Of a stretch of DNA of 16,433 nucleotides, positions 1,051-15,790 are shown piece after piece. Below the pieces are notes generated by a model. That model searched no databases. It was given only the letters and a program-made list of their open reading frames with translations, and was not told the origin of the DNA. Position numbers and translations under genes: made by a program. This DNA is from Oscillospiraceae bacterium (GTDB taxonomy: Bacteria > Bacillota_A > Clostridia > Oscillospirales > Oscillospiraceae). Location: the NCBI GenBank assembly GCA_016302015.1, contig JAEDOJ010000012.1, forward strand, positions 1 to 16,433. The letters are read 5' to 3'. Positions within the stretch are counted from its first letter, which is position 1; the number at the start of each line of letters is the position of its first letter.

Positions 1051-2253
1051 TTATTCGCTGATCTGGCTCTTCACCAGCAGTGCATTTAAAATTGCGGCAT
1101 AGCCCTCCGCGCTCTTATGGAGCTGTTCCAGCAGAATGTACTCGTCCACGGTATGGGCGAGGTTCTCCATAGAGGGGCCGAAGCCGATGGTACGGATGCC
1201 CTTCTCCCCTGCGTAGTGACTGCCGTTGGTGCAGAAGGAGTAGTTGGTGATGGTAGGCTCCAGGCCGATGGCCCGCAGGTCTGCGTAGGTATCCTGAACG
1301 AATTTTTCATCCTGCTTGAAGAGCCAGCCGGGGAAGAAGCGTTCCGCATAAATTTCATTGCCGGTGTAGCAGGTTTTCGTCTCCGCCCGGAGATAAACCT
1401 TCGCCTGAAAGGTGGGATCGGCGGCGGCCAGATCGTCAATTTTTTCCTGAATGGGCGCCAGAACACTTTCCCTGGTATCCCCCACCAGGAGGCGGCGATC
1501 CAACGTTGCAATACAGCGTTCGGGAACCACGGACGCACCGGGGAAGGGAGAGGAAATGATGTCCGTTAATTCCATAATCCCCTTGCCAAGTCCCTCCTGC
1601 TCTTCGGGAACAATATCCTCCATGGCCTTCAGCAGCTTCATCATGGACTTGACGGCGTTGATGCCCTTCTCCGGGTTGGCGGAGTGGGCGGGCTTGCCGA
1701 TGGTCTCCAAACCGATCTCCGCACGACCCCGCTGACCGATTTTCAGGTTCAGATTGGAGGCCTCGCCAATGACAACGTAGTCCGGCTCCACCCGCTGGGA
1801 GATCATCCGTGCGGACACGCCCTCGTACAATTCCTCGTAGACCACGCCGGCCACATAAATCTCTCCGGGGAAGTCCCGGTTGCAATTTTCCGCATAATAG
1901 GCCGCGCCGCAGATCATCGCCGCCACCGCGCCCTTCATATCGGAAGCGCCACGGCCACAGACACGATCCTCCAGCACTTCCCCGCCGAAGGGATCATAGG
2001 TCCAGCGTTCCGGCTCGTTCACCGGGACGGTATCAATATGTCCGTCCAGCAAAACCTTTGCGCCGGGACGGCTGCCCTTGATACAGCCGATCACATTTCC
2101 GTACACATCCACAAACACGTCATCGTAGCCCAGCTCTTCCATAGCCGTTCTGACTACGTTGGCAACGTCAGACTCCTGACCGGAGTAGCTCTTCGCCCGG
2201 ATCATTTTGCTGCAAAGCTCCGTGGCCTTCTGATGCAGCTGTTCCCGTGTCAT
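1051..2253 (-). CDS. ygeY: YgeY-type M20-family metallohydrolase
   Basis: A 400-residue M20-family amidohydrolase/peptidase. The two-metal site is complete: H72 and D74 in DGHIDTVP, D105 in GRGASDMKG, catalytic E140-E141 in VVYEELYEG, E164 in VIGEASN, and H367 in ENLAHTVDEY. H190 in GKPAHSANPEKG belongs to the dimerisation/lid domain. Overall it resembles YgeY, the selenium-metabolism-linked hydrolase found with SsnA and HyuA. M20 enzymes hydrolyse N-carbamoyl, N-acyl or peptide bonds, so here it probably trims a ring-opened ureido or amide intermediate in the cytoplasm. GGAGGG lies 5 nt before ATG, and the SsnA gene ends 18 nt upstream. The YgeY assignment is by recalled family similarity. 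Another M20 member, such as a carbamoylase, is the main alternative. Confidence 0.88.
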   Translation of the reverse strand: MTREQLHQKATELCSKMIRAKSYSGQESDVANVVRTAMEELGYDDVFVDVYGNVIGCIKGSRPGAKVLLDGHIDTVPVNEPERWTYDPFGGEVLEDRVCGRGASDMKGAVAAMICGAAYYAENCNRDFPGEIYVAGVVYEELYEGVSARMISQRVEPDYVVIGEASNLNLKIGQRGRAEIGLETIGKPAHSANPEKGINAVKSMMKLLKAMEDIVPEEQEGLGKGIMELTDIISSPFPGASVVPERCIATLDRRLLVGDTRESVLAPIQEKIDDLAAADPTFQAKVYLRAETKTCYTGNEIYAERFFPGWLFKQDEKFVQDTYADLRAIGLEPTITNYSFCTNGSHYAGEKGIRTIGFGPSMENLAHTVDEYILLEQLHKSAEGYAAILNALLVKSQISE

Positions 2254-2271
2254 AATATCCCTCCAAACTTA

Positions 2272-3597
2272 TTACATTGCATCCCAGAGTCTCTGCGCCT
2301 CCTGACGGCAGGCAGCAAAGACCTCTTTTTCATCCACCTTGGTGCATTTGTGGTTCTCCACCACAGTCTCTCCGTCCACAACGACGGTATGTACATGGCC
2401 GCTGAAGCCGCTGGTCATATGGGACAGGACGTTCCCGCTGTTCAGCGGCGTAGGCGGATCATAATCCAGAATCAGGAAGTCTGCGGCGCTGCCGGGACGA
2501 AGCACGCCCACGTCATAGCCGAAAACATTTCTGGCAAGACGCTGATTGTTGGTAAAGGCCATATCCAGCACCTGTCTGCCGGAGAAGGTGGTGCAGTCCA
2601 TGGTGCGGATATGCTGCAAAATAGAGGCAAAGCCCAGCTCCGTGAACAGATCATAGGTATAGCCGTCGCCGCCCAGCGCCACATGAACCCCGGCCTCCAT
2701 GAGAGGCACCACCGGGCAGATGCCCACGGCGTTATTGGTATTGGACTGGCAGTTATGAGCCGCGGTAATGCCGGTGCGCCGCATGATCTCAAACTGAGGC
2801 GCAGCCACATGGACATTATGGGCGGTTATGGTCTTTTCATTCAGGATGCCAAACCGTTCCAGGCGTTCGGTGACGTGCATATCGTAGAGCTTGTAGCTGT
2901 CGCTGACGTCGGCGGCGGCCTCCGCCATATGGATATGGAAGCCGGCATTGCAGGCCTTTCCCGCCTCCGCCGCCAAGCCCAGCGTCTCATCTCCCAAGGT
3001 ATAAGAAGCATGAAGCCCGAAGAGACCCGCAAAACGGTCATCCTGACGTACCTTTTTCAGATAGCGGCGGTTTTCCTCGATGCCCTGAAGGGCACGCTCC
3101 CTGCCGTCACGATCCGTGATCTCATAGGCAAGGCAGCCCCGGCCGCCCACCAAACGCATGGCGTCCTCGATCACATCCAGACTGCCGGAAATGAAATTCG
3201 GGCTTGCCTGATGGTCAAAATAGGTGGTGGTTCCGGCCTTCAGACCCTCAATCATGCCCATCATGGTGCTGTAATAGGTCTGCTTTTCGTCCAGCAGCTT
3301 GTCCACCTTCCACCACATTCTGGAAAGCACCTGCTGCCAGTTCAAAACCGGCTGGTTCAGGGACATTCCCCGGACAAACTGACCGTAAAAATGGCAATGG
3401 GAGCTGATCATGCCGGGCATGAGGATGGCGCCGCCCAGGTCGTGGCGCACCTCCGCCTGAGGCAGTTGGTCATCGGGACAGAGCCCCACCCCGGCGACCC
3501 GGTTGCCTTCCACCAGCAGGTAACCGCCGGGTAGCAGCATTTGCTCCACATCCCCTGTGATGATGTTGGCATGATAGTATAATGTTCGCTGTTTCAT
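2272..3597 (-). CDS. ssnA: SsnA-type aminohydrolase (amidohydrolase superfamily)
   Basis: A 441-residue member of the TRZ/ATZ, cytosine- and guanine-deaminase branch of the amidohydrolase superfamily. Its length and sequence fit SsnA. The mononuclear metal site is visible: H67 and H69 (SSHCHFYG), H221/H223 (FHIHMAEA), H260 (ITAHNVH) and D311 (GGDGYTYDLF). A C-terminal composite beta-domain ends the fold (PGSAADFLILDY, VVVDGETVVEN). SsnA proteins were first linked to selenium metabolism by genome co-occurrence and later to bacterial purine/urate breakdown. The likely reaction is hydrolytic deamination or ring opening of a pathway intermediate. It starts one base after the hyuA-like stop (TGATATG), so the two are probably translationally coupled. 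Confidence 0.9.
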   Translation of the reverse strand: MKQRTLYYHANIITGDVEQMLLPGGYLLVEGNRVAGVGLCPDDQLPQAEVRHDLGGAILMPGMISSHCHFYGQFVRGMSLNQPVLNWQQVLSRMWWKVDKLLDEKQTYYSTMMGMIEGLKAGTTTYFDHQASPNFISGSLDVIEDAMRLVGGRGCLAYEITDRDGRERALQGIEENRRYLKKVRQDDRFAGLFGLHASYTLGDETLGLAAEAGKACNAGFHIHMAEAAADVSDSYKLYDMHVTERLERFGILNEKTITAHNVHVAAPQFEIMRRTGITAAHNCQSNTNNAVGICPVVPLMEAGVHVALGGDGYTYDLFTELGFASILQHIRTMDCTTFSGRQVLDMAFTNNQRLARNVFGYDVGVLRPGSAADFLILDYDPPTPLNSGNVLSHMTSGFSGHVHTVVVDGETVVENHKCTKVDEKEVFAACRQEAQRLWDAM

Positions 3598-3598
3598 A

Positions 3599-4984
3599 TC
3601 AAGTCAACCTTCTTGCCGATTGCGGCAAACCCCTTTCCAGAAGATTTCCTGTACCCGCCGCCGTATGATCCTCGGCGCCGTCAATCACAACTCTCCCGTT
3701 GGACAGAACCTTATCTACCCCAACATGAAGCTTCACACCCTCAAAGGGGGTATAATCTGTCTTTTCATGGAGCATGGAAGCCGTCAGCGTCCGCTCAACG
3801 CCGGTGTCCAGCAGGACAATGTCCGCATCCGCGCCTACGGTCAGGCTGCCCTTTCGGGGATAGAGACCGTAGAGCTTGGCAGGCGTCTGAGAGGTCAGCT
3901 CCACCAGCCGCTCCATGGAAATCCTCCCGGTATAAACGCCCATTTCATACAGGAGAACCAGTCTGGTTTCAATGCCGGGCATACCGCCGGGAATTTCATA
4001 GAATTTATCCGACACCCGTTTCTGACTCCTGTAGAAGCCGCAGTCGTCGGTGCCGATGGTAAAGGCCGTGCCCTCCTGCAGAACCTGCCAGATCTCCTCC
4101 CGATCCGCCGCCGTGCGGATGGCGGGGTTGACCAGAAAGTCGCTGGCGTCCTCCCGCTCATAGACGGTCTCGTCGAAGTACAAATAGTGGGGACAGGTCT
4201 CGCCGTAGACCTCCAGACCCTCCTTCTGGGCCTGCGCGATCAGTCTCGCCCCCGCTCCGCTGGAAACGTGGCGAATCAGAATTCTGGCTCCGGTCTTCCG
4301 GGACAATTGGATCAGCCGCTCCACCGCGGAGGATTCCACAGCCTTGGGCTTGCTTTCCAGAAAATATCTGGGAGAGGTCTTCCCCTCTGCCTTCAGCCTT
4401 GCGGTGGCTTCGTCGATCATATCTTCATTTTCCGCATGGATCGTAGCGATGGCTCCATGCTCCGCAATCACCTGAAAGGCCCGCTCCATGTCCTCGTAGG
4501 GCACCAGAAGGGTTTCACGGTAGGCGGTATAAAATTTGAAGGAGGTAAATCCTTCCTCTATTAAAGCGGGAATGGCCCGCAGAGTTTCCTCGTTGATGTC
4601 CGTCAGCGTGCAGTGGAAGCTGTAGTCCACGGCGCACTGGCTTCGGGCAATGCTGACCCGTTCTTCCCTGGCGGCAAGAATGGAGCCCCCTCTGGCCTGA
4701 TCGGCAAAATCGATCAGGGTGGTGACGCCGCCAAAAGCACCGGCTCTGGTGCCGTCATAAAAATCGTTCATGGTCTGGGTTCCGCCAAAGGGCAGAAGCA
4801 TATGCGCGTGGGTTTCAATCACTCCGGGAATGGCCAATCGGCCGCTTCCGTCGATTTCCCGTTCTGCCTCACCGGGAAGCTTTGCCGCTATGGCTGCGAT
4901 TTTGCCGTCTTTCACGGCGATATCTACGATCCCCAAATCTTCGGGAGCGTAGGCATGTACGTTACGAAGGATCAAGGAATACAT
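3599..4984 (-). CDS. hyuA: HyuA-type dihydropyrimidinase / D-hydantoinase
   Basis: A 461-residue cyclic amidohydrolase of the dihydropyrimidinase/allantoinase group. All binuclear-zinc ligands are present: H59 and H61 (ETHAHML), the carboxylated lysine K150 (FTSFKFYTAY), H183 (IHAEN), H239 (IRHVSS) and D313 (IGTDDCGF). The family opens five- or six-membered cyclic ureides to N-carbamoyl acids. In this operon it would open a ring already saturated by the PreA-like reductase, the same order as in reductive pyrimidine breakdown. A purine-derived imidazole or pyrimidine ring is an equally good substrate. GAGAGGAAG precedes ATG. The ABC lipoprotein gene ends 82 bp upstream, with a strong hairpin in between. 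Allantoinase specificity cannot be excluded. Confidence 0.9.
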   Translation of the reverse strand: MYSLILRNVHAYAPEDLGIVDIAVKDGKIAAIAAKLPGEAEREIDGSGRLAIPGVIETHAHMLLPFGGTQTMNDFYDGTRAGAFGGVTTLIDFADQARGGSILAAREERVSIARSQCAVDYSFHCTLTDINEETLRAIPALIEEGFTSFKFYTAYRETLLVPYEDMERAFQVIAEHGAIATIHAENEDMIDEATARLKAEGKTSPRYFLESKPKAVESSAVERLIQLSRKTGARILIRHVSSGAGARLIAQAQKEGLEVYGETCPHYLYFDETVYEREDASDFLVNPAIRTAADREEIWQVLQEGTAFTIGTDDCGFYRSQKRVSDKFYEIPGGMPGIETRLVLLYEMGVYTGRISMERLVELTSQTPAKLYGLYPRKGSLTVGADADIVLLDTGVERTLTASMLHEKTDYTPFEGVKLHVGVDKVLSNGRVVIDGAEDHTAAGTGNLLERGLPQSARRLT

Positions 4985-5012
4985 TCGTCTCTTCCTCTCT
5001 TCTCAGTTCTTC

Positions 5013-5049
5013 ACAGCGGCGGGGCGGGCATTGCCCGCCCCCTGGCTGT
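5013..5049 (-). promoter_or_regulatory. GC-rich intercistronic hairpin between lipoprotein and hyuA genes
   Basis: A 9-bp perfect stem GGGGCGGGC/GCCCGCCCC (5021-5029 and 5033-5041) has a 3-nt loop. An outer ACAGC/GCTGT stem lies across a 3x3 internal loop. On the minus strand it is followed by GAAGAACTGAG with no U-tract, so it is not a classical terminator. Such hairpins after a solute-binding-protein gene commonly protect the upstream mRNA from 3' exonucleases and raise its level over downstream genes; that role here is inference. Confidence 0.7.
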
Positions 5050-5066
5050 TTGCGTCAGATTCTTTT

Positions 5067-6118
5067 TTACTTCTCGTAGGATTCTACCACGTTGACGGTG
5101 CCGTTGGCAACGTTGCCAATCAGAGTTTCGATCTCTGCTGCCAAATCCGCGTCAACGATTGCGCTGTTCAGCTCTGCCAGCTCAACGCCAACACCCAGGC
5201 CGGGCTTGTAAACGCCGCCGAAGGAGCCGTCCTTAATTCTGTCAACCTGGCTTGCGATAACGGGAGGAACGATCTCAACAACAGAGGTGAGCATCAGTTC
5301 GGGAGCCAGATCGTGCTGGTCAGAGCCGTAGCCCATGACATAGATGCCGGCTTCCACGCAGGCCTCGATCACGCCCAGACCGGTGGTATCGGCTGCGTGC
5401 ATGATCACGTCAGCGCCCTGCTCGATCATGGAGTTTGCGCTCTCCTTGCCCAGAGCGGTGTCGTCGGTGTTGCCGGTCATGATGACCTTCACGTCCACAT
5501 CAGCATTGGCGTCCTTTGCGCCCTGAACGTATGCGTTCTTCATGGTGAGCTGGCCTGCGGACTCGGTGCCGCCGATGTAGCCAACCACGCCGGTCTTGGA
5601 CATCTTGGCAGCCAGATAGCCGCAGATGTAGGTTGCGTGATAAACAGCGGTGTCAACAAAGCCGATGTTGTCGGGATAGTTGTCCACAGGAGCCTTGCCG
5701 TAGACAAAGAAGTAGTTGTTGGGGTTGTTCTCAGCCACATGGCGTCGCCGAACTGGGAGCCGTGAGCGATCACCAGGCTGTAGCCCTCGTCCACGAAGTT
5801 CATCGCGACAGCTTCGCAGTTGGAGGTGTCGGTGTTTTCCACATACTGGGTCTTGTAGCCTTCAGCCTTCAGCTGCTCCAGGCCCTGATATGCGGTGTAG
5901 TTCCAGGATTCGTCCGTAATAACGCCGGGGAGGATCAGTGCGATGGACAGTTCTTCGTCGCCGGTGGGTTCGGCATCGGGCTTGGTAGCCTCTTCGGTTG
6001 CCTTCGTTTCTTCGTTTGCTTTGGTTTCGTCGGGCTTGTCAGCGTCATCGGAGCCGCCGCAAGCAACCAGGCTCAGTACCATGACCAAGCAGAGCAGGAT
6101 AGCGAGTAACTTTTTCAT
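5067..6118 (-). pseudogene. BMP-family ABC transporter substrate-binding lipoprotein, interrupted by a 1-bp frameshift
   Basis: Two halves in different frames make one basic-membrane-protein (PnrA/Med-type) binding protein of about 350 residues. The N-terminal half (6118 down to about 5739) begins MKKLLAILLCLVMVLSLVAC, a lipoprotein signal peptide with lipobox LVAC. A Glu/Lys/Thr-rich linker follows, then ALILPGVITDESWNYTAYQG, and the half ends at HGSQFGDAM. The C-terminal half (about 5738 to 5067) resumes at VAENNPNNYFFVYGKAPVDN and continues through VGYIGGTES and DVIMHAADTTGLGV to the stop. ATGTGGCTGAG needs one extra G (ATG GTG GCT GAG) to rejoin the frames. GGAGG lies 5 nt before ATG at 6118; an in-frame ATG ten codons upstream lacks one. 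BMP proteins deliver nucleosides or purine-like ligands to the adjacent permeases. The break is either a recent mutation or a sequence error. Confidence 0.85.
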
Positions 6119-6133
6119 ATTGTCCTCCAAAAT

Positions 6134-6162
6134 TTTATATTTTTTCAAGCACGGTTGTGCAA
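6134..6162 (-). promoter_or_regulatory. Possible internal promoter for the lipoprotein gene
   Basis: TTGCAC (6157-6162) and TATAAA (6134-6139) are separated by 17 bp in the 57-bp gap upstream of the lipoprotein. The -35 matches the consensus at only three positions and the -10 at five. An internal promoter here would help make binding protein in excess of the permeases. AT-rich gaps give such matches by chance, so this is tentative. Confidence 0.35.
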
Positions 6163-6175
6163 TGAAAACAAGGTT

Positions 6176-6925: not shown

Positions 6926-6939
6926 AACTCAGTTCCCTC

Positions 6940-7872
6940 CTATCGACCTTCTTTTTCGAAGATGCCGCCAACGGTTTTGGGGCCTCTCTTGTTCCGTCCG
7001 GCCAGCAGCAGGCTGAGGATCGCCACAATATAGGGCAGAGCCAGCAGCAGCTGATAGGGACAGTTGACGCCCATCGCCTGCAGACGAAGCTGGAAGGCAT
7101 TGATGAAGCCGTAGCCGAAGGAGCCAAGCATCACGTAGGTGGGATGCCAGCCGCACAGCAGGCAGACAGCCAGCGCCAGGAAGCCCCGGCCTGCGGAAAT
7201 TTCAGGAGCAAAGCTGCCGGTAATGCCGCAGACCAGATAAGCGCCGCCCAGACCGGCAAGGAAGCCGGAGAGGATCACCGTACCCCAGCGGTAGCCCACC
7301 ACGTTGATGCCGCAGCTCTGAGCCGCCCGGGGATTTTCACCAAGGGAGCGGGTCTTCAGACCCAGCTTGGTACGGTACAGGACGAAGCCCGCCAGAATGG
7401 AGAGGGCGACGGCCAGATAACCCATGATATCCATGGAGAAGACGGAGCCGCCCAGAATGGGGATCTTGCTCAGCAGGGGGATGGGCAGCTTCTGCAGCAG
7501 CTCAACCTTGGGTCTCTGACCGCTGAGGCCGTAGAGAACCCGGTAGAGATAGGCGGTGAGGCCGGTGGCAAAAATGTTGAACATAAAGCCCACAACCGCC
7601 TGAGGCTGGTTTCTGGAAACGCCTACAAAGGCGATGATCACGGCGGAGAAGGCGCCGATCAGGCCGCCCAGCAAAATTGCGAGGAACAAGGAGGCGGTAA
7701 GCTGATAGATCATCAGGGAGGCCAGTGCGCCAATGAGCATATTGCCCTCCAGGCCAATGTTCATAACGCCGGCACGTTCCGCAATACTTTCGCCCACCGC
7801 AGGGAGCAAAATGGGCACGCCCTGGGTGATGGTAGAAGCAAGGAGCGCAGTAATAAATTCAACATTAAACAT
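6940..7872 (-). CDS. ABC transporter permease, BMP/nucleoside type (second permease)
   Basis: A 310-residue hydrophobic protein with about eight to ten predicted membrane segments, of the branched-chain-amino-acid/ribose permease superfamily found in BMP-type nucleoside importers (YufQ/NupQ-like). Diagnostic stretches are LLPAVGESIAERAGVMNIGL followed by EGNMLIGAL near the N-terminus and the cytoplasmic coupling-loop sequence RTKLGLKTRSLGENPRAAQS. The C-terminus is short and basic (GRNKRGPKTVGGIFEKEGR). It overlaps the upstream permease gene by 8 bp, and its stop lies within the next gene's ribosome binding site. It pairs with the adjacent permease to form the membrane channel. Substrate is assigned only as nucleoside/purine class, from family and context. 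Confidence 0.9.
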   Translation of the reverse strand: MFNVEFITALLASTITQGVPILLPAVGESIAERAGVMNIGLEGNMLIGALASLMIYQLTASLFLAILLGGLIGAFSAVIIAFVGVSRNQPQAVVGFMFNIFATGLTAYLYRVLYGLSGQRPKVELLQKLPIPLLSKIPILGGSVFSMDIMGYLAVALSILAGFVLYRTKLGLKTRSLGENPRAAQSCGINVVGYRWGTVILSGFLAGLGGAYLVCGITGSFAPEISAGRGFLALAVCLLCGWHPTYVMLGSFGYGFINAFQLRLQAMGVNCPYQLLLALPYIVAILSLLLAGRNKRGPKTVGGIFEKEGR

Positions 7873-8968
7873 GAGCGGCCTCCTTCTTTCCTGCCTTCCG
7901 CTTCTTAAGGAACCGGATGGTCTTAAAGCTGAAGCTGGTCAGGATGAACAGAACGATGATGCCCTGAAGAATATCCACCAGCGTAACGGGGACGCCACAG
8001 GCCACCTGCATTTTCTCAGCGCCTGCGTCCAGACCGGCCATCATCACCGCAGCGGCCACAAGACCCACAGGATTCAGGCAGCCGATCAGGGCGACGACCA
8101 TGCCGGTGATGCCCATGCTCTCGCAGATGCCTTCGATCAGACGATACTGAACGCCGAAGATTTCCACAGCGCCGGCCAGACCCGCAAAAGCGCCGGCCAG
8201 AACCATGGAGATAAAGCGGTAGAATTTCACGTTGCAGCCTGCGTACTGGGCTGCCTTGGGGCTTTTGCCCACAATGCGAAGGTTGTAGCCGAAGGTGGTA
8301 TACTTCCGAACGAACCAGTAAATGAGGACGCAGGCCAGAGCGATGAACAGGCCCACATGAGCGCGGGTGCCTTCCCACAGCTTGGGCAGCCGCATGGAGG
8401 CGTCAATGGCAGCGGACTGGGGATTGACGCCGCCGGGCTCCATAATGGGGCCGTGCACCAGATAGGCGATGAGCTGTAAGCAGATGTAGTTGAGCATCAG
8501 GGTGACGATCAGCTCGTTGGAGCCGTAGTAGGCCTTCATAAAGCCTGCGAAGCCGCCCCAGATGGCGCCGAAGAGGGCGCCCACCAGCATACCCACGGGG
8601 ATGGCCCAGGCCCCAAGGCTGGAGCCGAAGGAAGAGGTGGCAAAGAGGATCGCGCCCAGACAGCCGATATAAATCTGGCCTTCGCCGCCCAGGTTGTTGC
8701 AGCCGCCGGTGGCGGCAAAGGCAACGCCCACGCCAACAATAATCAGGGGAATGGATTTGGTAATCACTTCGCCGATGCCCAGCTTTGTGGTATAGGGACG
8801 AATGATCAGGTAGAAATACGCTTCCTTGGGATCGGTGTCAACCAGAGAAACAAAGATTGCGCCGATGAGCAGAGCCGCAAGGATGGACAGGAGGATCAGT
8901 CCAAAGGTACGCAGGCCGCCGAACAGTTCCGATTTGTCCAGACGGGAACGGATTTTACTTTGATTCAT
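7865..8968 (-). CDS. ABC transporter permease, BMP/nucleoside type (first permease)
   Basis: A 367-residue membrane protein of the YufP/NupP-like type. It has a first membrane segment at about residues 22-44 and a periplasmic-side loop (SLVDTDPKEAYFYLI). Typical family motifs are AFAATGGCNNLGGEGQIYIG, YGSNELIVTLMLNYI and the coupling loop TFGYNLRIVGKSPKAAQYAG. I chose the ATG at 8968 because it forms an ATGA overlap with the stop of the ATPase gene, the usual arrangement for coupled subunits. A longer reading from 9136 would only translate the ATPase C-terminus in another frame. It ends 8 bp inside the second permease gene. Together the two permeases and the double ATPase form a complete importer core. 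Confidence 0.9.
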   Translation of the reverse strand: MNQSKIRSRLDKSELFGGLRTFGLILLSILAALLIGAIFVSLVDTDPKEAYFYLIIRPYTTKLGIGEVITKSIPLIIVGVGVAFAATGGCNNLGGEGQIYIGCLGAILFATSSFGSSLGAWAIPVGMLVGALFGAIWGGFAGFMKAYYGSNELIVTLMLNYICLQLIAYLVHGPIMEPGGVNPQSAAIDASMRLPKLWEGTRAHVGLFIALACVLIYWFVRKYTTFGYNLRIVGKSPKAAQYAGCNVKFYRFISMVLAGAFAGLAGAVEIFGVQYRLIEGICESMGITGMVVALIGCLNPVGLVAAAVMMAGLDAGAEKMQVACGVPVTLVDILQGIIVLFILTSFSFKTIRFLKKRKAGKKEAAHV

Positions 8969-10485
8969 TTGCTCACCCCCATCATCATTCTGCCGATCTC
9001 GTAGGCGTCGAAGTCCTTCGGGAAGACCTCGCCTACAATCTGTCCCTTGTGCAGGACAAGAATCCGGTCGGAAATGGAGAACAGCTCTTCCATTTCGCCG
9101 GAGAACAGCATCACGCCGATGCCCTCGTCCCGGCACTTCTGAATGGTCTCACGGATAAACCATGTGGCCTTGATATCCAGACCACGGGTGGGATAGGAAC
9201 AGACCAGAATCTTCGGGTTCTTATCCAGCTCCCGGGCCAGAATAAACTTCTGCATATTGCCGCCGGACAGGTTGCCGATGCGCTGACCGATGCCCGTGGT
9301 TCGGACGTCGTAATCCTCGATGGCCTGCCGGGATTCCTGCTTGATCTTCCGGTAGTTCAGCAGACCCCATTTCTTCGGCGGGTTCATTTTCCGGAGAATC
9401 CAGTTCTGATACAGGGGATCGTCCTTGACGGTGCCCACCGTGATCCGGTCTGCCGGGACGCAGGACACGCCCTTTTCAATAAAGGGAACCGCGCTGGAGG
9501 TGTCCATATCCTCCCCGTCGATGTACAGGTTTCCGCCGGATTTCTGGCGCAGGCCGGTGATGACCTCTGCCAGCTCCGCCTGACCGTTGCCCTCCAGCGC
9601 CGCAATGCCGATGACCTCTCCGGCCTTCAGCTCAAAGCTCACGCCGTTGAGCATATTTGCGCCACGGTCGTCCCTGGCCTGCAAATTCTCCGCCCGCAGC
9701 AGGGGAATTCTCTTCTCCTCCGGGATTTCTTTCTTTGCGAAGGCCGGCGCGTCCACGTTTTCACCGATCATCATCTGGATGATCTTCTGCTTGTCCGCAT
9801 CCTTCGTCATCATCTGACCGCAGACCTTGCCGAGACTCAAAACGGTAATCCGCTGGCTGATTCGCAGAACCTCCTCCAGCTTGTGGCTGATGAAGATCAC
9901 GCTCTTGCCATGGGCAATCAGCTTCTCGATGGTATCAAAGAGGGCGTCAACCTCCTGAGGCGTGGAGAAGGAGGTCGGCTCGTCCAGCACCAGAACATCC
10001 GCGCCGATGTAGAGCAGCTTCAGAATCTCCACACGCTGCTGGGTGGAGATGGACAGCTTTTCGATGGGCGTGTGGACATCCACATCCATGCCGTATTCCC
10101 TGGCCAGCTTGTCCAGCTCCGCTTCGATTTCCTTGTCCTTTTTCAGCTTCCACCAGGGGTCCTTGCCCATAAGGAAGACGTTTTCCGCAGCAGAGTAGAT
10201 GTCAACCAGCATATAATGCTGATGCACCATGCCAATACCGTTGCGAATGGCGTCCTGCGGGGAGCGAATGGTAAGCGGCTGTCCGTTCTTGAACAGCTGA
10301 CCCTCATCCGGCTTGTAAATGCCGTAGAGAATATTCATCAGCGTGGTCTTACCGGCACCGTTTTCGCCAAGCAGGGCGTGAACCTCGCCGGGGTAGATCT
10401 TCAGATCAATGTGGTCGTTGGCGGTAAAATTGCCAAATCGTTTGGTGATGCCCCGAAATTCAATTGCGGGGGTTACTTCAGGCAT
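8965..10485 (-). CDS. ABC transporter ATP-binding protein, tandem ATPase, nucleoside/BMP type
   Basis: A 506-residue protein with two fused ATPase domains, as in the YufO/NupO and sugar-type importers. Domain 1 (about 5-240) has Walker A GENGAGKTT (40-48), a degenerate signature LSISTQQRVEIL (about 144-155), Walker B VLVLDEPTS and switch His201 (ISHKLEEV). Domain 2 (about 260-500) has a degenerate Walker A (ALEGNGQAE), signature LSGGNMQKFILARE and a Walker B ending in CSYPTRGLD that lacks the catalytic Glu. This asymmetry of one good and one weak site is normal for the family. GGAGG lies 7 nt before ATG, and the 2Fe-2S subunit gene ends 28 bp upstream. It powers import of the pathway substrate. 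Confidence 0.92.
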   Translation of the reverse strand: MPEVTPAIEFRGITKRFGNFTANDHIDLKIYPGEVHALLGENGAGKTTLMNILYGIYKPDEGQLFKNGQPLTIRSPQDAIRNGIGMVHQHYMLVDIYSAAENVFLMGKDPWWKLKKDKEIEAELDKLAREYGMDVDVHTPIEKLSISTQQRVEILKLLYIGADVLVLDEPTSFSTPQEVDALFDTIEKLIAHGKSVIFISHKLEEVLRISQRITVLSLGKVCGQMMTKDADKQKIIQMMIGENVDAPAFAKKEIPEEKRIPLLRAENLQARDDRGANMLNGVSFELKAGEVIGIAALEGNGQAELAEVITGLRQKSGGNLYIDGEDMDTSSAVPFIEKGVSCVPADRITVGTVKDDPLYQNWILRKMNPPKKWGLLNYRKIKQESRQAIEDYDVRTTGIGQRIGNLSGGNMQKFILARELDKNPKILVCSYPTRGLDIKATWFIRETIQKCRDEGIGVMLFSGEMEELFSISDRILVLHKGQIVGEVFPKDFDAYEIGRMMMGVSK

Positions 10486-10513
10486 GAATATTCCTCCTTT
10501 TCCCTGTATTTTC

Positions 10514-10984
10514 TCAGTCCGCCTTGGCGGCTGCTTCCACTGCGTTCACGATGGGAACATAGCCGGTGCAGCGGCACAGGTTTCCGGACATTGCCAGACG
10601 GATTTCATCTCTTGTGGGATTGGGGTTATGCAGCAGGAGGCAGTAGGCGCTCATCAGCATTCCCGGCGTGCAGAAGCCGCACTGGACTGCTCCGTGATTC
10701 ACAAAGCATTCCTGCAGCCGCCGTCCGATTTTCAGCTCAGACAGCCCCTCCACCGTTAAAATATCGCTTCCCTCCACCTGTCCCACCAGGGTCAGGCAGG
10801 AGGCACAGGCCTCGCCGTTGATGGCTACGGTGCAGGCGCCGCACTCTCCCACGGCGCAGCCCTCCTTCGTCCCGGTCAGGCGAAGCTCCTCACGGATGAC
10901 ATCCACCAGCCGTGCGGCAGGATCGCAGAAGACGCTGGTGGGTTTTCCGTTGATGGTAAATTGAATTACCCGTTTTTCAGCCAT
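10514..10984 (-). CDS. xdhC: Xanthine dehydrogenase family 2Fe-2S subunit
   Basis: The 156-residue iron-sulfur subunit of a three-subunit molybdenum hydroxylase. The plant-type 2Fe-2S cluster ligands are C43, C48, C51 and C63 (EGCAVGECGACTVAINGEAC), though the last is closer than in many relatives. The helical-domain cluster ligands are C102, C105, C137 and C139 (QCGFCTPGML and GNLCRCTGY). It passes electrons from the molybdenum centre to the FAD subunit. The start follows GAGGTG and overlaps the end of the FAD subunit gene by 8 bp (ATGGCTGA). I use xdhC in the E. coli XdhABC sense, not for the unrelated maturation factor of the same name. Substrate specificity lies in the large subunit. Confidence 0.93.
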   Translation of the reverse strand: MAEKRVIQFTINGKPTSVFCDPAARLVDVIREELRLTGTKEGCAVGECGACTVAINGEACASCLTLVGQVEGSDILTVEGLSELKIGRRLQECFVNHGAVQCGFCTPGMLMSAYCLLLHNPNPTRDEIRLAMSGNLCRCTGYVPIVNAVEAAAKAD

Positions 10985-11840
10985 CTTCCTTCACCTCATA
11001 GATCTGACATAACAGCCGCTGGATCAGCTTCTCGCTCACCGGCTGCTTATACATGGTAGAGGCTCGAACGCCGGCAATTTCCGGCAGCTTTGCGGCCTCC
11101 GCTTTTGCGATACTGCGGAACAGCTCCACAGAGGGCTGTTTCCCTTCCCCCATGGCGTTGATTTCGGGGAACATTCTGGGGCTGGGGAAGGCAGAACCGA
11201 TGGCAATCCGCAGGTCCGCGATCCGTCCCTCCTCCAGCCTGCCCGCCGCACAAACGGTCAGTCTGGAAATGGCGAGGGCTTCCCGGCGGCCCAGCTTGTA
11301 ATAGGTCTGGCGGTAATTGCTTCCCAGCTTCTCCACCACAACCTCCCGGATCAGCTCGCCCTCTTTCAAGGCATTGCGGTAGGGGCCGGTAATGAACTGA
11401 TCCACGGGAAGCTCCCGGCGTCCCTCCGACCCCTCCACCACGATCACGGCCTTCAGCAGCACCAGAGGCGCCAGGGTATCCGCCGCCGGGGAGGCATTGC
11501 CCAGATTTCCGCCGATGGTGCCCCGGTTCCGAATCTGGGGAGAGCCTACAGACCCGCTCCCCTCCGCCAGCACGGGGGCATACCGCCGCACCGGCTCGGA
11601 AGCCGCGATCTCTCTATGGGTGGTCATAGCGCCGATGCGGAGAACGGTTTCCTCCTCCACAATGTAGCGAAGCTCCCGCACCGACGTCAGATCAATGGCT
11701 GCTTTTCCTCTGTAGCACTGACTTTCCCGGTTTTTGACCACCACGTCCGTGCCCCCCGCCAGATAAACGCCCTGATGCTCACGGTGGAGCCGGATGGCCT
11801 CCTCTACGGTTGCCGGTCTGAAAAAATTACTGAAATTCAT
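10977..11840 (-). CDS. xdhB: Xanthine dehydrogenase family FAD-binding subunit
   Basis: A 287-residue FAD-binding subunit, normal length for bacterial XdhB/CoxM-type proteins. FAD pyrophosphate contacts are seen in VYLAGGTDVVVKNR (about residues 25-38) and in SPQIRNRGTIGGNLGNASPA (about 103-122). A CO-dehydrogenase-flavoprotein C-terminal domain follows. It takes electrons from the iron-sulfur subunit and hands them to NAD or another carrier; which one cannot be told here. The ATG at 11840 lies inside the last codons of the molybdenum subunit gene, a 14-bp overlap, with AAGGAGGG nine bases upstream. The three subunits are therefore made as a coupled set in the order Mo, FAD, Fe-S. Confidence 0.92.
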   Translation of the reverse strand: MNFSNFFRPATVEEAIRLHREHQGVYLAGGTDVVVKNRESQCYRGKAAIDLTSVRELRYIVEEETVLRIGAMTTHREIAASEPVRRYAPVLAEGSGSVGSPQIRNRGTIGGNLGNASPAADTLAPLVLLKAVIVVEGSEGRRELPVDQFITGPYRNALKEGELIREVVVEKLGSNYRQTYYKLGRREALAISRLTVCAAGRLEEGRIADLRIAIGSAFPSPRMFPEINAMGEGKQPSVELFRSIAKAEAAKLPEIAGVRASTMYKQPVSEKLIQRLLCQIYEVKEDG

Positions 11841-14121
11841 CCTTCAGTCCCTCCTTGCCACAGAAAAATACGGATTCCAGATCAAAGGGCAGATCATGGA
11901 GTCTGCCAATGCCCCGCAGTGCATGGTTGACTGCACAGGCAACTGCTGCGGCTCCCGGCTCCGTCGCCGGTTCTCCCAGAGATTTGGCTCCGTAAGGCCC
12001 TCTGGGATCGGGATTGTCCACCATAATGGCTTCGTTTTCCCCCACATCCATAAAGCTGGGGATGATATAGTTGTCAAAATTCAGATTTTTGTAGATGCCC
12101 TTCCGGGTGCCGATGTCCTCGGTCAGACCCATGCCCGCACCCATGACCATTCCGCCGTAGACCTGTCCGCAGGCCAGGGTTTCATTGATCACCCGTCCGG
12201 CGTCGTGGGAACCGGCCATCTTGATCACCTTGACCTTGCCCGTGGCCAGATCCACCTCTACCTCGGCGGCGTGGCAGGAATAGGTATAGGACACAAAGGC
12301 TTCTCCGCAGCACTTTTCGTGATCCCACTCCAGAGGGAAGTTCACGAAGGTGCCGTTGGCACAGGGGGTATCACCCACACCGTAGCAAACCGCCACGGCT
12401 TCCGGGAAGGACAACTCCTGTTCCCCGGCCTTTACCCGGTCACCGAAGAAGGAAATCTCCTCCGGCTTCACGCCGTATTTTTCGGCAACAGGCTTTGCGA
12501 TGATCTTTTTGATCTTTTCGGCGGCGTCAATGATGGCATGACCGCCGGTGAAGGTGCCCCGGGAGGCAATGGCTGCGCCGGAGGAAGGCGCGCGGCTGGA
12601 ATCGGCGATGTTCATGGTGATTCGTTCCAGGTCGCAGCCCAGCGCCTCCGCGGCAATCTGCGCCAGGGCGGTACGCAGTCCCTGTCCCTGCTCCGTATAG
12701 CCGCAGGAGACCAGGACGCTGCCGTCCTCCTCCACTTCTATGTAAACACGGGAGACGTCCAGACCCTCAGAGCCGATGCTCACACCCCGGAGGCTGCAGG
12801 CAATTCCCACGCCCCGACGGATCAGACCCTTGTTTTCCCGATTATACTTCTCATATTTTTCATCGTAGCCAATGGCGTTGGCTGCGTTATTCAAAACCTC
12901 CAGCACCGTAACCTTGTGCTTGTCCAGCAACTGACCGGTACCGGAAACATCCCCGGTTCGCAGGGCGTTCTTCCGGCGGAAGTCCAGAGGGGACATCCCC
13001 AGCTTCTCTGCCAGCTCATCCATGGCATTTTCCATGGCGAAAATGGATTGCGGTGTGCCGAAGCCCCGCATGGAGCCGGTGTGGACGTTGTTGGTGGTAA
13101 TGGCCCGGGCGTTGTAAAGCACATTGGGATTCCGGTAAGGTCCCGGCCCCAGATGGGAGGATTTTCCGATGACGCCGCAGGCCCAGTTTGCATAGGAACC
13201 GCTGTCCGCCACCGCCTCGGTATGAAGCGCCTGCAACGTGCCGTCCCGGTTGGCGCCGATGCGGATATGAAACTGAAAAGGATGCCGTTTATAGGACTCC
13301 CGGACGGATTCCTCCCGGGTCAGCACGTATTTTACCGGCCGCCCGGTTCTCAGGGCGATCAGTCCCGCCCGAATTGCCAGCGGCTCTACGCTTTCCAGCT
13401 TGCCGCCGAAGGTGCCGCCCAAGGTGCTCTGCACCACGTCCACCTTCGCCATAGGCAGGTTCAGGGAGCGGCAGACGGAAAGGCGCACCATATAGGGATT
13501 CTGAAGAGACCCGTAGACGGTCAATTTCTTGCTTTCAAAGTTCGGGATGACCACGATCGCTTCCGGTTCAATATACGCATGCTCCACAAACTGGGTGGAG
13601 TAATGGGTGTCTACCACCACATCGCATTCCGCAAGGGCCTTTTCCGCATCACCCTTGCAGGTGCGGCTGGTGGCGACCACATTTCCGGGATAATCATTGG
13701 TAATAATGGTTTCATTATTTTCGGCTTCCTCGGGAGAATACAGGCCGGGAAGCGGGTCGTAGGTGACACGAACCAGCTTTGCGGCCTCCTCGGCGATTTC
13801 CTTGGTCTCCGCCGCCACACAGGCCACCACATCCCCCCAGAACCGGGTCTTGTCATCCGCCAGAATGTACTGATCCAGCATGACCTCTCCGATCACCTTC
13901 AGGCCGGGAATGTCCCTGGCGGTAATCACCGCCGCAACTCCCTCCACAGCTTCTGCCGCAGAGGTGTCAATGGAGACAATCCTTGCGTGAGGGTTCTCGG
14001 CGTACACGCCCTTGGCGTACAGCATTCCCTCAAACCGAAGGTCGGCACCGTATTTCGCTTTCCCGGTGACCTTTTCATATACATCCAGTCGGTTGACGGG
14101 CTTATGAATGGAATGATACAT
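11827..14121 (-). CDS. xdhA: Xanthine dehydrogenase family molybdenum-binding subunit
   Basis: A 764-residue large subunit carrying the molybdopterin cofactor. Landmarks are the N-terminal a/b hammerhead (KVTGKAKYGADL), EHAYIEPEA (180-188), GGTFGGK (235-241), MRGFGTPQ (351-358), YTEQGQG (475-481), and the catalytic Glu E717 in GPYGAKSLGEPATEP. I set the start at 14121, where AAGGAG lies nine bases before ATG. The same frame is open 96 codons further upstream but overlaps the preA-like gene and adds nothing family-like. The residue after GGTFGGK is Leu242, where bovine xanthine oxidase has Glu802, and the Arg880 position aligns with Lys320. Canonical xanthine specificity is therefore doubtful. 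SsnA and YgeY neighbours suggest a selenium-containing hydroxylase. No cofactor-maturation genes are in the window. Confidence 0.92.
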   Translation of the reverse strand: MYHSIHKPVNRLDVYEKVTGKAKYGADLRFEGMLYAKGVYAENPHARIVSIDTSAAEAVEGVAAVITARDIPGLKVIGEVMLDQYILADDKTRFWGDVVACVAAETKEIAEEAAKLVRVTYDPLPGLYSPEEAENNETIITNDYPGNVVATSRTCKGDAEKALAECDVVVDTHYSTQFVEHAYIEPEAIVVIPNFESKKLTVYGSLQNPYMVRLSVCRSLNLPMAKVDVVQSTLGGTFGGKLESVEPLAIRAGLIALRTGRPVKYVLTREESVRESYKRHPFQFHIRIGANRDGTLQALHTEAVADSGSYANWACGVIGKSSHLGPGPYRNPNVLYNARAITTNNVHTGSMRGFGTPQSIFAMENAMDELAEKLGMSPLDFRRKNALRTGDVSGTGQLLDKHKVTVLEVLNNAANAIGYDEKYEKYNRENKGLIRRGVGIACSLRGVSIGSEGLDVSRVYIEVEEDGSVLVSCGYTEQGQGLRTALAQIAAEALGCDLERITMNIADSSRAPSSGAAIASRGTFTGGHAIIDAAEKIKKIIAKPVAEKYGVKPEEISFFGDRVKAGEQELSFPEAVAVCYGVGDTPCANGTFVNFPLEWDHEKCCGEAFVSYTYSCHAAEVEVDLATGKVKVIKMAGSHDAGRVINETLACGQVYGGMVMGAGMGLTEDIGTRKGIYKNLNFDNYIIPSFMDVGENEAIMVDNPDPRGPYGAKSLGEPATEPGAAAVACAVNHALRGIGRLHDLPFDLESVFFCGKEGLKDEFQ

Positions 14122-14177
14122 GGCTCTGTTCTCCTTTTTCATCCGATCCTGAATGTCCCTCTGTGAAAAAGAGGAGC

Positions 14178-14220
14178 GACATTGGGAACACCGCTGGAGT
14201 GTGGCGATGTCCCCAATGTC
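14178..14220 (-). promoter_or_regulatory. Imperfect 15-bp hairpin between preA-like and Mo-subunit genes
   Basis: GACATTGGG (14178-14186) pairs with CCCAATGTC (14212-14220). After one mismatch ACA pairs with TGT, and after another CGC pairs with GCG, leaving a 9-nt loop. On the minus strand a CTCTTTTTC tract begins about 6 nt past the stem, so it could act as a leaky terminator or a processing site lowering expression of the genes after preA. The remaining intergenic sequence (14122-14258) holds the Mo-subunit ribosome binding site and nothing else I recognise. Confidence 0.6.
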
Positions 14221-14258
14221 TGAGGAACATGGAGTGAAGTCAATGAAAAAACTTGCAA

Positions 14259-15464
14259 TTATTTCAGTGAGATACAGGACTTGGGGCAAACGCTGAGGCA
14301 AAGGCCGCAGCCCCGGCACACAGAGGCGTCTACCCTGGGGACGGAGCCCTTCACATGGGTCAGCGCTCCAAAGCCCGCATCCTGACAGGCGGTAGCGCAG
14401 CTTCCGCACTTCAGGCAGTTGGCCTGATCAATGGTGCAAAGCTGGCGGTTGTTCCGATCCAGCTCAGAGTGATCCACCAGATACTTCAGGGAGCTGCCCG
14501 CCATCTCATCCAGAGAGCTGTAGCCCTTCTCCTCCAGATAGCCCAGCAGACCCTTCCGCATATCGGAGACCATCTTAAAGCCATACTTGGAAATGGCCGT
14601 GCAAACCTGAACGTTCCTTGCGCCCAGGAGGATAAATTCCGCTGCGTCCCGCCAGTTGCTGATGCCGCCGACGCCCGCCACGGGAATCTCCAGCTCCTTG
14701 GTGATCTTGGAGACGCAGCCAAGGGCAATGGGCTTGATTCCGGGGCCGGACAAGCCGCCCCAGGTGGAGTAGCCGCCGATGTTTAGCTTGGGATAGCCGG
14801 TTTCCAGATCAATACCGATAAATCCACGGACAGTATCAATGGCGCACAGGGCGTCCGCCCCGCCTTTGACCGCTCCCTTGGCAATGTCCACAATGTCCGT
14901 AACATTGGGGGTCATCTTGACAATGATGGGTGTCCCCTTCTTCGTTGCGTTCTTAATGACCCGGGTCGTCTTCTCCATCAGGTCACGGTCGGCTGCGGGA
15001 ATGGCATTGCTGGCGTGGTCCGCATCCCCCGCGATGCTGTGCTCGCCCTGAGGGCAGGACATACTGCATTCGATCATATCCGCACCGGCTTCCTCCAGCC
15101 GGTTTACCAGCTCCAGCCACTCGTCGTCTCCGGAAGCCATAATGCTGCCGATGAAGCGGCGGTCGGGGAAGAGCTGCTTGAAATAGGCGATTTCTTCCTG
15201 AATCTCCTCGATGGTTCTCTCGGAGATCAGATCGATATTGTAGAACAGAGACTGGGTCTTGCCTGCGAAGGGCAGACCGGCCATATTCGGCTCCGCCAGT
15301 TGGGGGCAATGCTTGGGTAGGGCCGTGGTCTTGAAGACGATGCCGCCCCACCCGGCCTCCAAAGCCCGGCGAACCTTCTCACGACTGTCAGAGGAAGGAG
15401 AAGCTGCAACAGTGAAGGGGTTTTCAAATGTTACACCGGCAAAATCAATGTTTAAATTTTTCAT
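14259..15464 (-). CDS. PreA-like FMN oxidoreductase with two 4Fe-4S clusters (dihydropyrimidine dehydrogenase family)
   Basis: A 401-residue protein homologous to PreA and the C-terminal half of mammalian dihydropyrimidine dehydrogenase (DPD). The FMN barrel (about 1-330) keeps the catalytic cysteine C137 (SMSCPQG), the lysine K183 in VKMTPNVTDI and N76 in YNIDLIS. The ferredoxin tail binds two clusters: C350, C353, C356, C360 and C383, C386, C389, C393. DPD saturates the 5,6 double bond of uracil or thymine. Here two of three pyrimidine-binding asparagines are changed (S134 and D210), so another ring is likely reduced. No PreT-type flavoprotein partner is present in the window. It is the first gene of the operon, with AGAAAGG 11 nt before ATG and a strong regulated promoter upstream. 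Confidence 0.88.
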   Translation of the reverse strand: MKNLNIDFAGVTFENPFTVAASPSSDSREKVRRALEAGWGGIVFKTTALPKHCPQLAEPNMAGLPFAGKTQSLFYNIDLISERTIEEIQEEIAYFKQLFPDRRFIGSIMASGDDEWLELVNRLEEAGADMIECSMSCPQGEHSIAGDADHASNAIPAADRDLMEKTTRVIKNATKKGTPIIVKMTPNVTDIVDIAKGAVKGGADALCAIDTVRGFIGIDLETGYPKLNIGGYSTWGGLSGPGIKPIALGCVSKITKELEIPVAGVGGISNWRDAAEFILLGARNVQVCTAISKYGFKMVSDMRKGLLGYLEEKGYSSLDEMAGSSLKYLVDHSELDRNNRQLCTIDQANCLKCGSCATACQDAGFGALTHVKGSVPRVDASVCRGCGLCLSVCPKSCISLK

Positions 15465-15570
15465 TGGTCTATGTACCTTTCTCTGATCCCAGTCAGATCA
15501 GTCTGATTCTTTACCGCATTGTTGCGGTCGTTATCCTCAAGTCCGATATGCGATATATCACTCTCTTTAT
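15465..15570 (-). promoter_or_regulatory. Structured 5' leader of the catabolic operon
   Basis: From the predicted start near 15570 to the ATG there are about 105 nt. They contain two small hairpins: ACCGCA/TGCGGT (15513-15518 and 15523-15528) and CTGATC/GATCAG (15483-15488 and 15496-15501). The second sits directly against the Shine-Dalgarno sequence at 15477-15483. I see no match to a purine, 2'-dG or PreQ1 riboswitch core and no terminator alternative, so ligand sensing by RNA is not claimed. Confidence 0.45.
15551..15560. promoter_or_regulatory. Operator-like site 1 (CGATATATCA), just downstream of the transcription start
   Basis: The sequence GCGATATATCACTC at 15550-15563 shares the 12-base arm GATATATCACTC with site 3. 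It lies about 11-20 bp downstream of the predicted transcription start, a classical position for a blocking repressor. Probable GntR-family target, by inference. Confidence 0.6.
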
Positions 15571-15576
15571 AGCCTA

Positions 15577-15605
15577 AGTATATTCCCCTTTTTTCAGATT
15601 GTCAA
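15577..15605 (-). promoter_or_regulatory. Sigma-A promoter of the catabolic operon
   Basis: A perfect TTGACA (15600-15605) and TATACT (15577-15582, five of six) are separated by exactly 17 bp on the minus strand. Predicted start near 15570. It drives the preA-like gene and, given short or overlapping junctions, probably the genes down to 1051. Such a near-consensus promoter would be strong unless repressed, which fits the adjacent palindromes. Confidence 0.85.
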
Positions 15606-15707
15606 TACACAGGATGCCCAAATTTTCGACAATATTTTGTGCAATCTGCCTGAATTCAACCGTAAGATTTCGTTTTTATGGGCACAATATCAGACATCAG
15701 TAGAACG

Positions 15708-15741: not shown

Positions 15742-15790
15742 TTGTCTCTCCCCTGCACGGGAATCCAGACTCCAAATTTCGATCATACGC

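What the first reader, a model, noticed from the sequence alone, without database searches (positions are those of the whole stretch)
1051..15464. Variant anaerobic N-heterocycle (probably purine) degradation operon: PreA-like reductase, Mo-hydroxylase, BMP importer and four hydrolases
Seen: eleven co-directional genes with short or overlapping junctions encoding import, hydroxylation, reduction, cyclic-amide hydrolysis (HyuA type), amidohydrolases (SsnA, creatininase) and an M20 hydrolase (YgeY type). Known: SsnA, HyuA and YgeY homologues occur with xanthine dehydrogenase-type enzymes in bacterial purine/urate catabolism, usually with YgeX, YgeW and YgfK. Inference: YgeX, YgeW and YgfK are absent from this window, while a PreA-like reductase and a creatininase homologue take their place. 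This suggests a different chemical route (hydroxylate, reduce, hydrolyse stepwise) or a different substrate.
Basis: partly seen in the sequence, partly recalled or inferred. Interest (0 to 1): 0.75.

Follow-up and report, generated by a model that had tools for sequence, protein, structure and literature searches.

The report
Gut-bacterial urate degradation operon variant
A gene cluster from a gut-type anaerobic bacterium that most likely takes apart uric acid without oxygen by a route described in 2025, in a version that carries an extra enzyme of unknown job and a different importer.

Summary
The operon is real: twelve tightly packed minus-strand genes (1051-15464), then a GntR regulator. 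It is best read as a lineage-specific variant of the reductive uric-acid (yanthine) pathway (PMC12507026). A PreA-like reductase replacing YgfK is already known (UacX there; "dehydrogenase X1", PMC4016543). Its pocket has the Asp/Ser pair of all 22 UacX-type loci examined, not the Glu/Asn of pig DPD and 12 pyrimidine-type relatives.

New here: (1) an added Asn-to-Asp change in the reductase pocket, linked to two changes in SsnA on 14 of 14 contigs of this lineage (13 paired by equal contig length) and on 0 of 20 comparators; (2) a creatininase-fold hydrolase, lacking creatininase's Glu122, that no comparator stretch contains (0 of 99) but whose clade shares exact contig lengths with this reductase or SsnA on ten other contigs; (3) a YgeY of the type found with UacY (7 of 8 loci) and not with YgeW (0 of 8). 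The creatininase may replace UacY; nothing proves it. The window is a whole contig, so YgeX and UacY may lie just outside it, and no genome of this lineage could be inspected.

The parts
14259..15464 (-). UacX/PreA-like reductase (DHO_dh + 4Fe-4S dicluster domain, 401 aa), first gene of the operon; Asp78, Ser134, Cys137, Asp210 at the pig DPD positions E611, N668, C671, N736
   Evidence: PRK08318 409.5 bits over cut-off 335; residues
11827..14121 (-). XDH-family molybdopterin subunit (764 aa), like the XdhA of the XdhABC module next to SsnA in UacX clusters; bovine Glu802 position is Leu, Arg880 and Glu1261 positions kept (residue numbers recalled)
10977..11840 (-). XDH-family FAD subunit (XdhB-like)
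10514..10984 (-). XDH-family 2Fe-2S subunit (XdhC-like)
8965..10485 (-). BMP/PnrA-type ABC importer, ATPase
   Evidence: best model NF047930 (putative B6 importer), 461 bits, below its cut-off 670
7865..8968 (-). BMP-type importer permease
   Evidence: best model NF047929, 163 of 400 bits
6940..7872 (-). BMP-type importer permease
   Evidence: best model NF047928, 203 of 465 bits
6176..6925 (-). creatininase-superfamily hydrolase of an unnamed subfamily; Glu33, His35, Asp44, His118, Glu164 kept; creatininase Glu122 position is Gly120
   Evidence: PF02633 208 bits
5067..6118 (-). BMP/PnrA-type substrate-binding lipoprotein, gene split by a frameshift near 5730 (pieces 5540-6118 and 5067-5738)
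3599..4984 (-). HyuA/D-hydantoinase
   Evidence: TIGR02033 428.5 bits over cut-off 393
2272..3597 (-). SsnA-type amidohydrolase of a divergent lineage (Gly72, Trp87)
   Evidence: PRK07203 426 bits, just under cut-off 444
1051..2253 (-). M20 hydrolase of the second YgeY type (61% to the Cetobacterium YgeY next to UacY, 32% to E. coli YgeY)
   Evidence: PRK13004 466.5 bits over cut-off 321
309..989 (-). GntR/FCD regulator, 61 bp downstream, same strand; probable regulator of the operon (inference)
   Evidence: PF00392, PF07729
15577..15605 (-). sigma-70-like site (11 of 12 matches) upstream of the operon; consensus match only
   Evidence: one site found, 1.0 expected in shuffles

Best explanation
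The operon encodes a lineage-specific variant of the reductive uric-acid (yanthine) degradation pathway in a gut Clostridia-type bacterium. Proposed steps, all inferred from family and neighbourhood and none shown here by activity: a BMP-type ABC importer brings in the purine or a nucleoside; XdhABC delivers yanthine (2,8-dioxopurine), in the published pathway by removing the 6-oxygen of urate; the UacX-type reductase dearomatises yanthine at the C5/C6 side, with ferredoxin as the likely donor because no PreT or YgfK-type FAD partner is present in the window; SsnA opens the ring to ureidomethyl-hydantoin; HyuA opens the hydantoin to 2,3-diureidopropionate; YgeY of the second type and one more hydrolase remove the two ureido groups. 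The creatininase-fold enzyme is the best candidate in the operon for that extra hydrolase, in the place held by UacY or YgeW elsewhere. YgeX, the final lyase, and possibly UacY, may lie off the contig.
For: Published pathway and enzymes: PMC12507026 and PMC12990295. 27 polar positions are invariant (over 98%) across 76 SsnA of this lineage and 59 standard SsnA. Reductase: Asp611/Ser668 (pig DPD numbering) as in 22 of 22 UacX-type loci, 20 of them with SsnA in the stretch, against Glu/Asn in pig DPD and in 12 of 12 relatives with no SsnA in their roughly 4-kb stretch, 8 of these beside a hydantoinase-type gene. In the DPD-5FU structure N668 and N736 donate to O4 (PMC10970046); if hydride goes to purine C6, as the structures of the published products imply, the O4 place is taken by N9-H, so loss of donors (N668S, N736D) fits yanthine (inference). 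XdhA resembles (44-48%) the XdhA of the XdhABC module next to SsnA in 10 loci. YgeY is of the type found with UacY in 7 of 8 loci, YgeX in 8 of 8, YgeW in 0 of 8; E. coli-type YgeY goes with YgeW in 35 of 40 and UacY in 0 of 40. Reductase, SsnA and creatininase of these lineages share exact contig lengths.
Against: No UacY, YgeW or YgeX in 16.4 kb. No NCS2 urate permease; the importer is BMP-type, and its best models are putative vitamin B6 importers, all below cut-off. XdhA lacks the E. coli XdhD Glu606 loop and is 26% identical to XdhD, so urate dehydroxylation is not shown. SsnA scores below both curated cut-offs (426 of 444, 404 of 455). A second reductase type in SsnA clusters, 16 loci, has Glu611 with Ser668, so Asp611 is not general for SsnA clusters. 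The extra Asp in the reductase and the Gly/Trp pair in SsnA could mean a different purine. The BMP gene is frameshifted. Of the close reductases P0123-P0178 (about 79%) only P0173 shares a contig length with the creatininase or SsnA rows compared, so this reductase may also occur without the operon; those lists are capped.
Confidence: 0.72

Rival explanations
1. The operon degrades a related but different purine (for example an amino- or methyl-substituted 8-oxopurine) by the same order of steps; the reductase Asp210 and SsnA Gly72/Trp87 mark the changed substrate.
For: The changes sit in consecutive enzymes and go together: 14 of 14 contigs of this lineage have Asp + Gly/Trp, 20 of 20 comparator clusters have Asn + Ser/Phe. 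A carboxylate at the N736 position could bind an amino group (inference). The importer and the extra hydrolase also differ.
Against: SsnA keeps the 27 polar positions shared with standard SsnA. The 14 contigs are one clade, so one ancestral change in each gene can explain the linkage, and 13 of them are paired only by equal contig length. Loss of the O4 donors also fits yanthine itself.
Confidence: 0.15
2. A reductive pyrimidine pathway (PreA-like dehydrogenase, dihydropyrimidinase, M20 ureido hydrolase) with accessory hydrolases.
For: PreA model PRK08318 and D-hydantoinase/dihydropyrimidinase model TIGR02033 both pass their cut-offs; M20 enzymes can cleave ureido acids (general knowledge).
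Against: Two of the three uracil-binding Asn are replaced (N668 by Ser, N736 by Asp) and Glu611 is Asp. An XDH and SsnA are not needed for uracil. YgeY is the UacY-linked type.
Confidence: 0.06
3. Two neighbouring functions in one operon: a purine module plus an unrelated creatininase-fold enzyme and BMP importer, for example for nucleoside or vitamin uptake.
For: BMP-type permeases occur near SsnA without a creatininase in 14 of 87 SsnA loci, 2.7-9.2 kb away. The creatininase sits between importer genes.
Against: The creatininase clade shares exact contig lengths with this SsnA or reductase on ten other contigs, and its gene is 14 bp from the permease and 57 bp from the binding-protein gene.
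Confidence: 0.07

Closest known systems
Reductive uric acid degradation cluster, C. difficile variant (Li et al. 2025, PMC12507026)
   Same: XDH homologue, PydA-like UacX without FAD domain, SsnA, HyuA, YgeY; hydrolytic rather than carbamoyltransferase style
   Different: no UacY or YgeX on the contig; creatininase-fold hydrolase and BMP importer added; XDH has an FAD subunit; extra pocket changes in UacX and SsnA. The C. difficile sequences themselves were not compared
E. coli ygeW-ssnA-xdhD cluster (NC_000913)
   Same: SsnA, HyuA, XDH, and a hydrolase named YgeY
   Different: YgfK, YgeW, YqeA, YgeX and an XdhD-YgfM-type enzyme not found in the window; E. coli YgeY is only 32% identical, a different type
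Cetobacterium somerae plasmid cluster (NZ_CP143320)
   Same: YgeY type (61%), SsnA, hydantoinase, a DHO_dh-type reductase
   Different: has D-aminoacylase (UacY), diaminopropionate lyase and NCS2 permeases; its reductase is only 31% identical and shows a gap at the Cys671 position
Dehydrogenase X1 neighbourhoods (Barba et al. 2013, PMC4016543)
   Same: PreA-like dehydrogenase with hyuA, ygeY, ssnA, xdhABC
   Different: there also with ygeW, yqeA and a ygfU permease
Creatininase (PDB 1j2t, 1q3k, 3a6d-l)
   Different: 26% identity over that alignment; Glu122 position is Gly; 93.5 bits against the TIGR04448 cut-off of 235

Membership tests
Reductive uric acid (yanthine) pathway cluster | SsnA homologue with intact catalytic residues | tested here: met
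   27 polar positions shared with standard SsnA are kept, the HxH and Asp motif residues among them (motif roles recalled); the curated SsnA cut-offs themselves are missed
Reductive uric acid (yanthine) pathway cluster | YgfK or UacX-type reductase in the cluster | tested here: met
   UacX-type residues Asp611/Ser668, family and neighbourhood. The C. difficile UacX sequence itself was not at hand
Reductive uric acid (yanthine) pathway cluster | XDH homologue able to reduce urate at C6 | tested here: inconclusive
   three XDH subunits present; no XdhD-type Glu606; resembles the XdhA of modules next to SsnA
Reductive uric acid (yanthine) pathway cluster | HyuA hydantoinase and YgeY hydrolase | tested here: met
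   TIGR02033 and PRK13004 pass; YgeY is the second type
Reductive uric acid (yanthine) pathway cluster | YgeW(+YqeA) or UacY for the 2-ureido group | tested here: inconclusive
   none on the contig; the contig ends about 300 bp past the regulator gene
Reductive uric acid (yanthine) pathway cluster | YgeX diaminopropionate lyase | tested here: inconclusive
   none on the contig; same limit
Reductive uric acid (yanthine) pathway cluster | turnover of urate to yanthine and ureido acids | not testable with these tools
   needs culture or enzyme assays
PreT-PreA dihydropyrimidine dehydrogenase | three uracil-binding Asn (N609, N668, N736) and a PreT partner | tested here: not met
   N609 kept, N668 is Ser, N736 is Asp; no YgfK/PreT-like match in the window
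Creatininase EC 3.5.2.10 (TIGR04448) | curated cut-off and Glu122 | tested here: not met
   93.5 of 235 bits; Glu122 position is Gly120
MftE (TIGR03964) | curated cut-off | tested here: not met
   119.9 of 172 bits
YgeY (PRK13004 / TIGR03526) | curated cut-offs | tested here: inconclusive
   PRK13004 met (466.5 of 321), TIGR03526 not met (251.6 of 321.5)
Xanthine dehydrogenase XdhA (NF043082) | curated cut-off | tested here: not met
   511 of 780 bits; bovine Glu802 position is Leu (residue numbers recalled)

The most novel reading that the evidence does not exclude
In this gut Clostridia lineage a creatininase-superfamily enzyme, unrelated to YgeW and UacY, has become the ureido-cleaving hydrolase of the reductive urate pathway, while the yanthine reductase and the ring-opening SsnA acquired matched pocket changes (N736D with S72G/F87W) that tune them to a purine whose C4 side donates rather than accepts a hydrogen bond.
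Probability: 0.3. Interest if true: 0.62.

Novelty: new variant of a known kind. Interest (0 to 1): 0.5.

Why it matters
Anaerobic urate breakdown by gut bacteria affects host urate, and its pathway was worked out only in 2025. A separate lineage with its own reductase/SsnA pocket, another importer and an unassigned hydrolase gives direct test material: it would widen the list of candidate urate-degrading gut bacteria, help settle which enzyme removes which ureido group (the two published schemes disagree, PMC12990295), and give a function to an orphan subfamily of the creatininase fold.

Tried and rejected
Viral-contig scans with the reductase (no relative) and with the creatininase alignment (one locus, 38%). 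One search was wasted by a threshold that was too strict. Plasmid collection: SsnA 9 records, best 35.6%; reductase 62 records, best row 39.6%; creatininase 3 records, 42-44% over part.

Rejected: a uracil pathway (pocket residues), true creatininase (cut-off and Glu122), creatininase replacing YgeX (different chemistry, by general knowledge).

Rows dropped or double: L293 (45% YgeY, at a contig end) was left out of the YgeY-type counts. L192 and L288 are the same genome, so the 22 UacX-type loci are 21 genomes and the 40 E. coli-type YgeY loci are 39 genomes; neither has SsnA in the stretch and both are outside the 20 comparators. L294 overlaps L231.

Not found in print: no held paper joins creatininase, hydantoinase and xanthine dehydrogenase (0 papers); the listings show no paper on a creatininase in a urate cluster. 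In PMC12507026 'creatinin' occurs once, in the mouse work, and 'ABC transporter' not at all. Most subscription papers are not in that library, the second pathway paper (Liu et al.) among those I did not see.
Full report
What is there. The window holds one operon on the minus strand. In transcription order: UacX/PreA-like reductase, XdhA, XdhB, XdhC, BMP-type ABC ATPase, two permeases, creatininase-fold hydrolase, BMP binding lipoprotein, hydantoinase (HyuA), SsnA, YgeY-type M20 hydrolase, then a GntR/FCD regulator. Twelve genes span 1051-15464, with gaps of -14 to +137 bp. A sigma-70-like site lies 113 bp upstream of the first start codon (one found, 1.0 expected in shuffles). No tRNA, and no Rfam family at gathering score, was found. 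The BMP binding-protein gene is broken by a frameshift near 5,730. The window equals the whole public contig (16,433 bases) and ends on the left in 42/84-bp tandem repeats, a likely assembly break.

What it is. The published reductive urate pathway (PMC12507026: I read abstract, introduction, the first of three parts of the results, discussion and passages) runs: XDH homologue (urate to yanthine), YgfK or UacX, SsnA, HyuA, YgeW or UacY, YgeY, YgeX. The window has a match for the XDH, UacX, SsnA, HyuA and YgeY steps. The commentary PMC12990295 (first of two parts read) notes that the order of ureido cleavage is disputed. A PreA-like dehydrogenase with hyuA, ygeY, ssnA and xdhABC was described in 2013 (PMC4016543, passages). 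So the main point of the finding, PreA in place of YgfK, is known. Passages of PMC2276186 and PMC11448449 list the E. coli, Enterococcus and C. difficile clusters and name no creatininase.

Tests of the reductase. I aligned it with pig DPD and relatives from unnamed Bacillota genomes. Pig DPD and 12 of 12 relatives with no SsnA in their roughly 4-kb stretch (L149-L160; 8 beside a hydantoinase-type gene) carry Asn609/Glu611/Asn668/Asn736. All 22 UacX-type loci (21 genomes; 20 loci with SsnA in the stretch) carry Asp611/Ser668/Asn736, two of them with Phe in place of Cys671 (L205, L206). A third group, 16 loci with a shorter Cetobacterium-type reductase, has Glu611/Ser668/Asn736 and a gap at 671. 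The window has Asp611/Ser668/Cys671/Asp736, as do 119 of the 120 listed database relatives; the other one differs at 611. In the DPD-5FU complex Asn736 binds N3 and O4, and Asn668 binds O4 (PMC10970046, passages). Inference: the names of the published SsnA products imply a CH2 at the old purine C6, so hydride goes to C6; uracil O4 then corresponds to yanthine N9-H, and donors at 668 and 736 should give way to acceptors, as seen. A PreT or YgfK partner lies within 4 kb of UacX in 18 of 22 loci; three of the other four stop at a stretch or contig end, and L198 has none. The window has none, which suggests ferredoxin as donor.

Tests of SsnA, XDH and YgeY. The window's SsnA lineage (76 full-length sequences) and standard SsnA (59) share 27 polar positions invariant above 98% and differ consistently at three positions only. 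Positions 72/87 are Gly/Trp in 81 of 81 lineage rows (P0241-P0321), Ser/Phe in 88 of 91 SsnA from loci, and Ser/Phe in 33 of the 39 lower database rows, where one has Gly/Trp, four Gly/Phe and one Gly with a gap. Where both proteins could be placed on one contig, Asp736 goes with Gly/Trp on 14 of 14 (the window, plus 13 paired by equal contig length) and Asn736 with Ser/Phe on 20 of 20 comparators. The 14 are one clade, so this is one or few events. The window XdhA is 44-48% identical to the XdhA of the XdhABC module next to SsnA in UacX clusters; 10 of 10 such proteins share its GS-x-QNP and RG motifs. It lacks the XdhD Glu606 that PMC12507026 links to urate orientation. YgeY falls in a second type: 61% to the Cetobacterium protein beside UacY, 32% to E. 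coli YgeY. E. coli-type YgeY has YgeW in 35 of 40 loci and UacY in 0 of 40; the second type has UacY in 7 of 8, YgeX in 8 of 8, YgeW in 0 of 8 (8 loci, 6 genomes). L231 is the one without UacY, so UacY is not strictly needed beside this YgeY. The window thus belongs to the hydrolytic branch, and UacY and YgeX are the expected missing genes.

The importer. BMP-type permeases (34-39% identical) occur 2.7-9.2 kb from SsnA, same strand, in 14 of 87 SsnA loci. So a BMP importer near SsnA and XDH genes is not unique, though none of those 14 stretches has a YgeY of either type.

Limits. No genome of the window's lineage could be inspected. Operon linkage in relatives rests on equal contig lengths, not on reading their DNA. 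The window's taxonomy (gut Clostridia, perhaps Oscillospiraceae-like) rests on GC content, a database name for one relative (Eubacteriales bacterium) and general impression.

Verdict. A real, well-packed purine operon, most likely a variant of the reductive urate pathway.

Noticed in passing
window 5067-6118: The BMP substrate-binding protein gene reads in two frames with a break near 5730; either an assembly error or a broken gene.
   Followed up: partly
window 1-252: Tandem repeats of 42/84 bp at the contig's left end, probably where the assembly broke.
   Followed up: no
window 15483-15957: Four terminator-like hairpins on both strands (1.2 expected in shuffles), three with ten or more pairs, lie between the operon and the next open frame.
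   Followed up: no
window 15972-16397: An open frame of 141 aa on the minus strand near the contig end matches no NCBIfam family.
   Followed up: partly
L205:8405-9634 and L206:8988-10211: UacX-type proteins in two clusters that also hold full-length YgfK have Phe in place of the Cys671; possibly a reductase that lost or changed its activity.
   Followed up: no
L129 and 15 unnamed loci (for example L223, L228, L232, L251): A second DHO_dh-type protein (366 aa in Cetobacterium; gap at the 671 position in the alignment) sits in SsnA clusters without PreA-type UacX; its relation to the C. difficile UacX is unclear.
   Followed up: partly
SsnA loci: Proteins named YgeY split into two types, one tied to YgeW and one tied to UacY plus YgeX.
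   Followed up: yes
L083 and L089: Distant creatininases in two unnamed Bacillota genomes sit next to an amidohydrolase 24-26% identical to SsnA.
   Followed up: no
P0123-P0178 (protein search): A large group of near-identical reductases about 79% identical to the window's; only P0173 shares a contig length with the creatininase or SsnA rows compared. Their context is unknown.
   Followed up: no
L219:16391-28000 (Pusillibacter faecalis plasmid): A gut Oscillospiraceae replicon carries preA with an amidohydrolase, a carbamoyltransferase, a carbamate kinase and a cytosine permease, which looks like a pyrimidine cluster.
   Followed up: no
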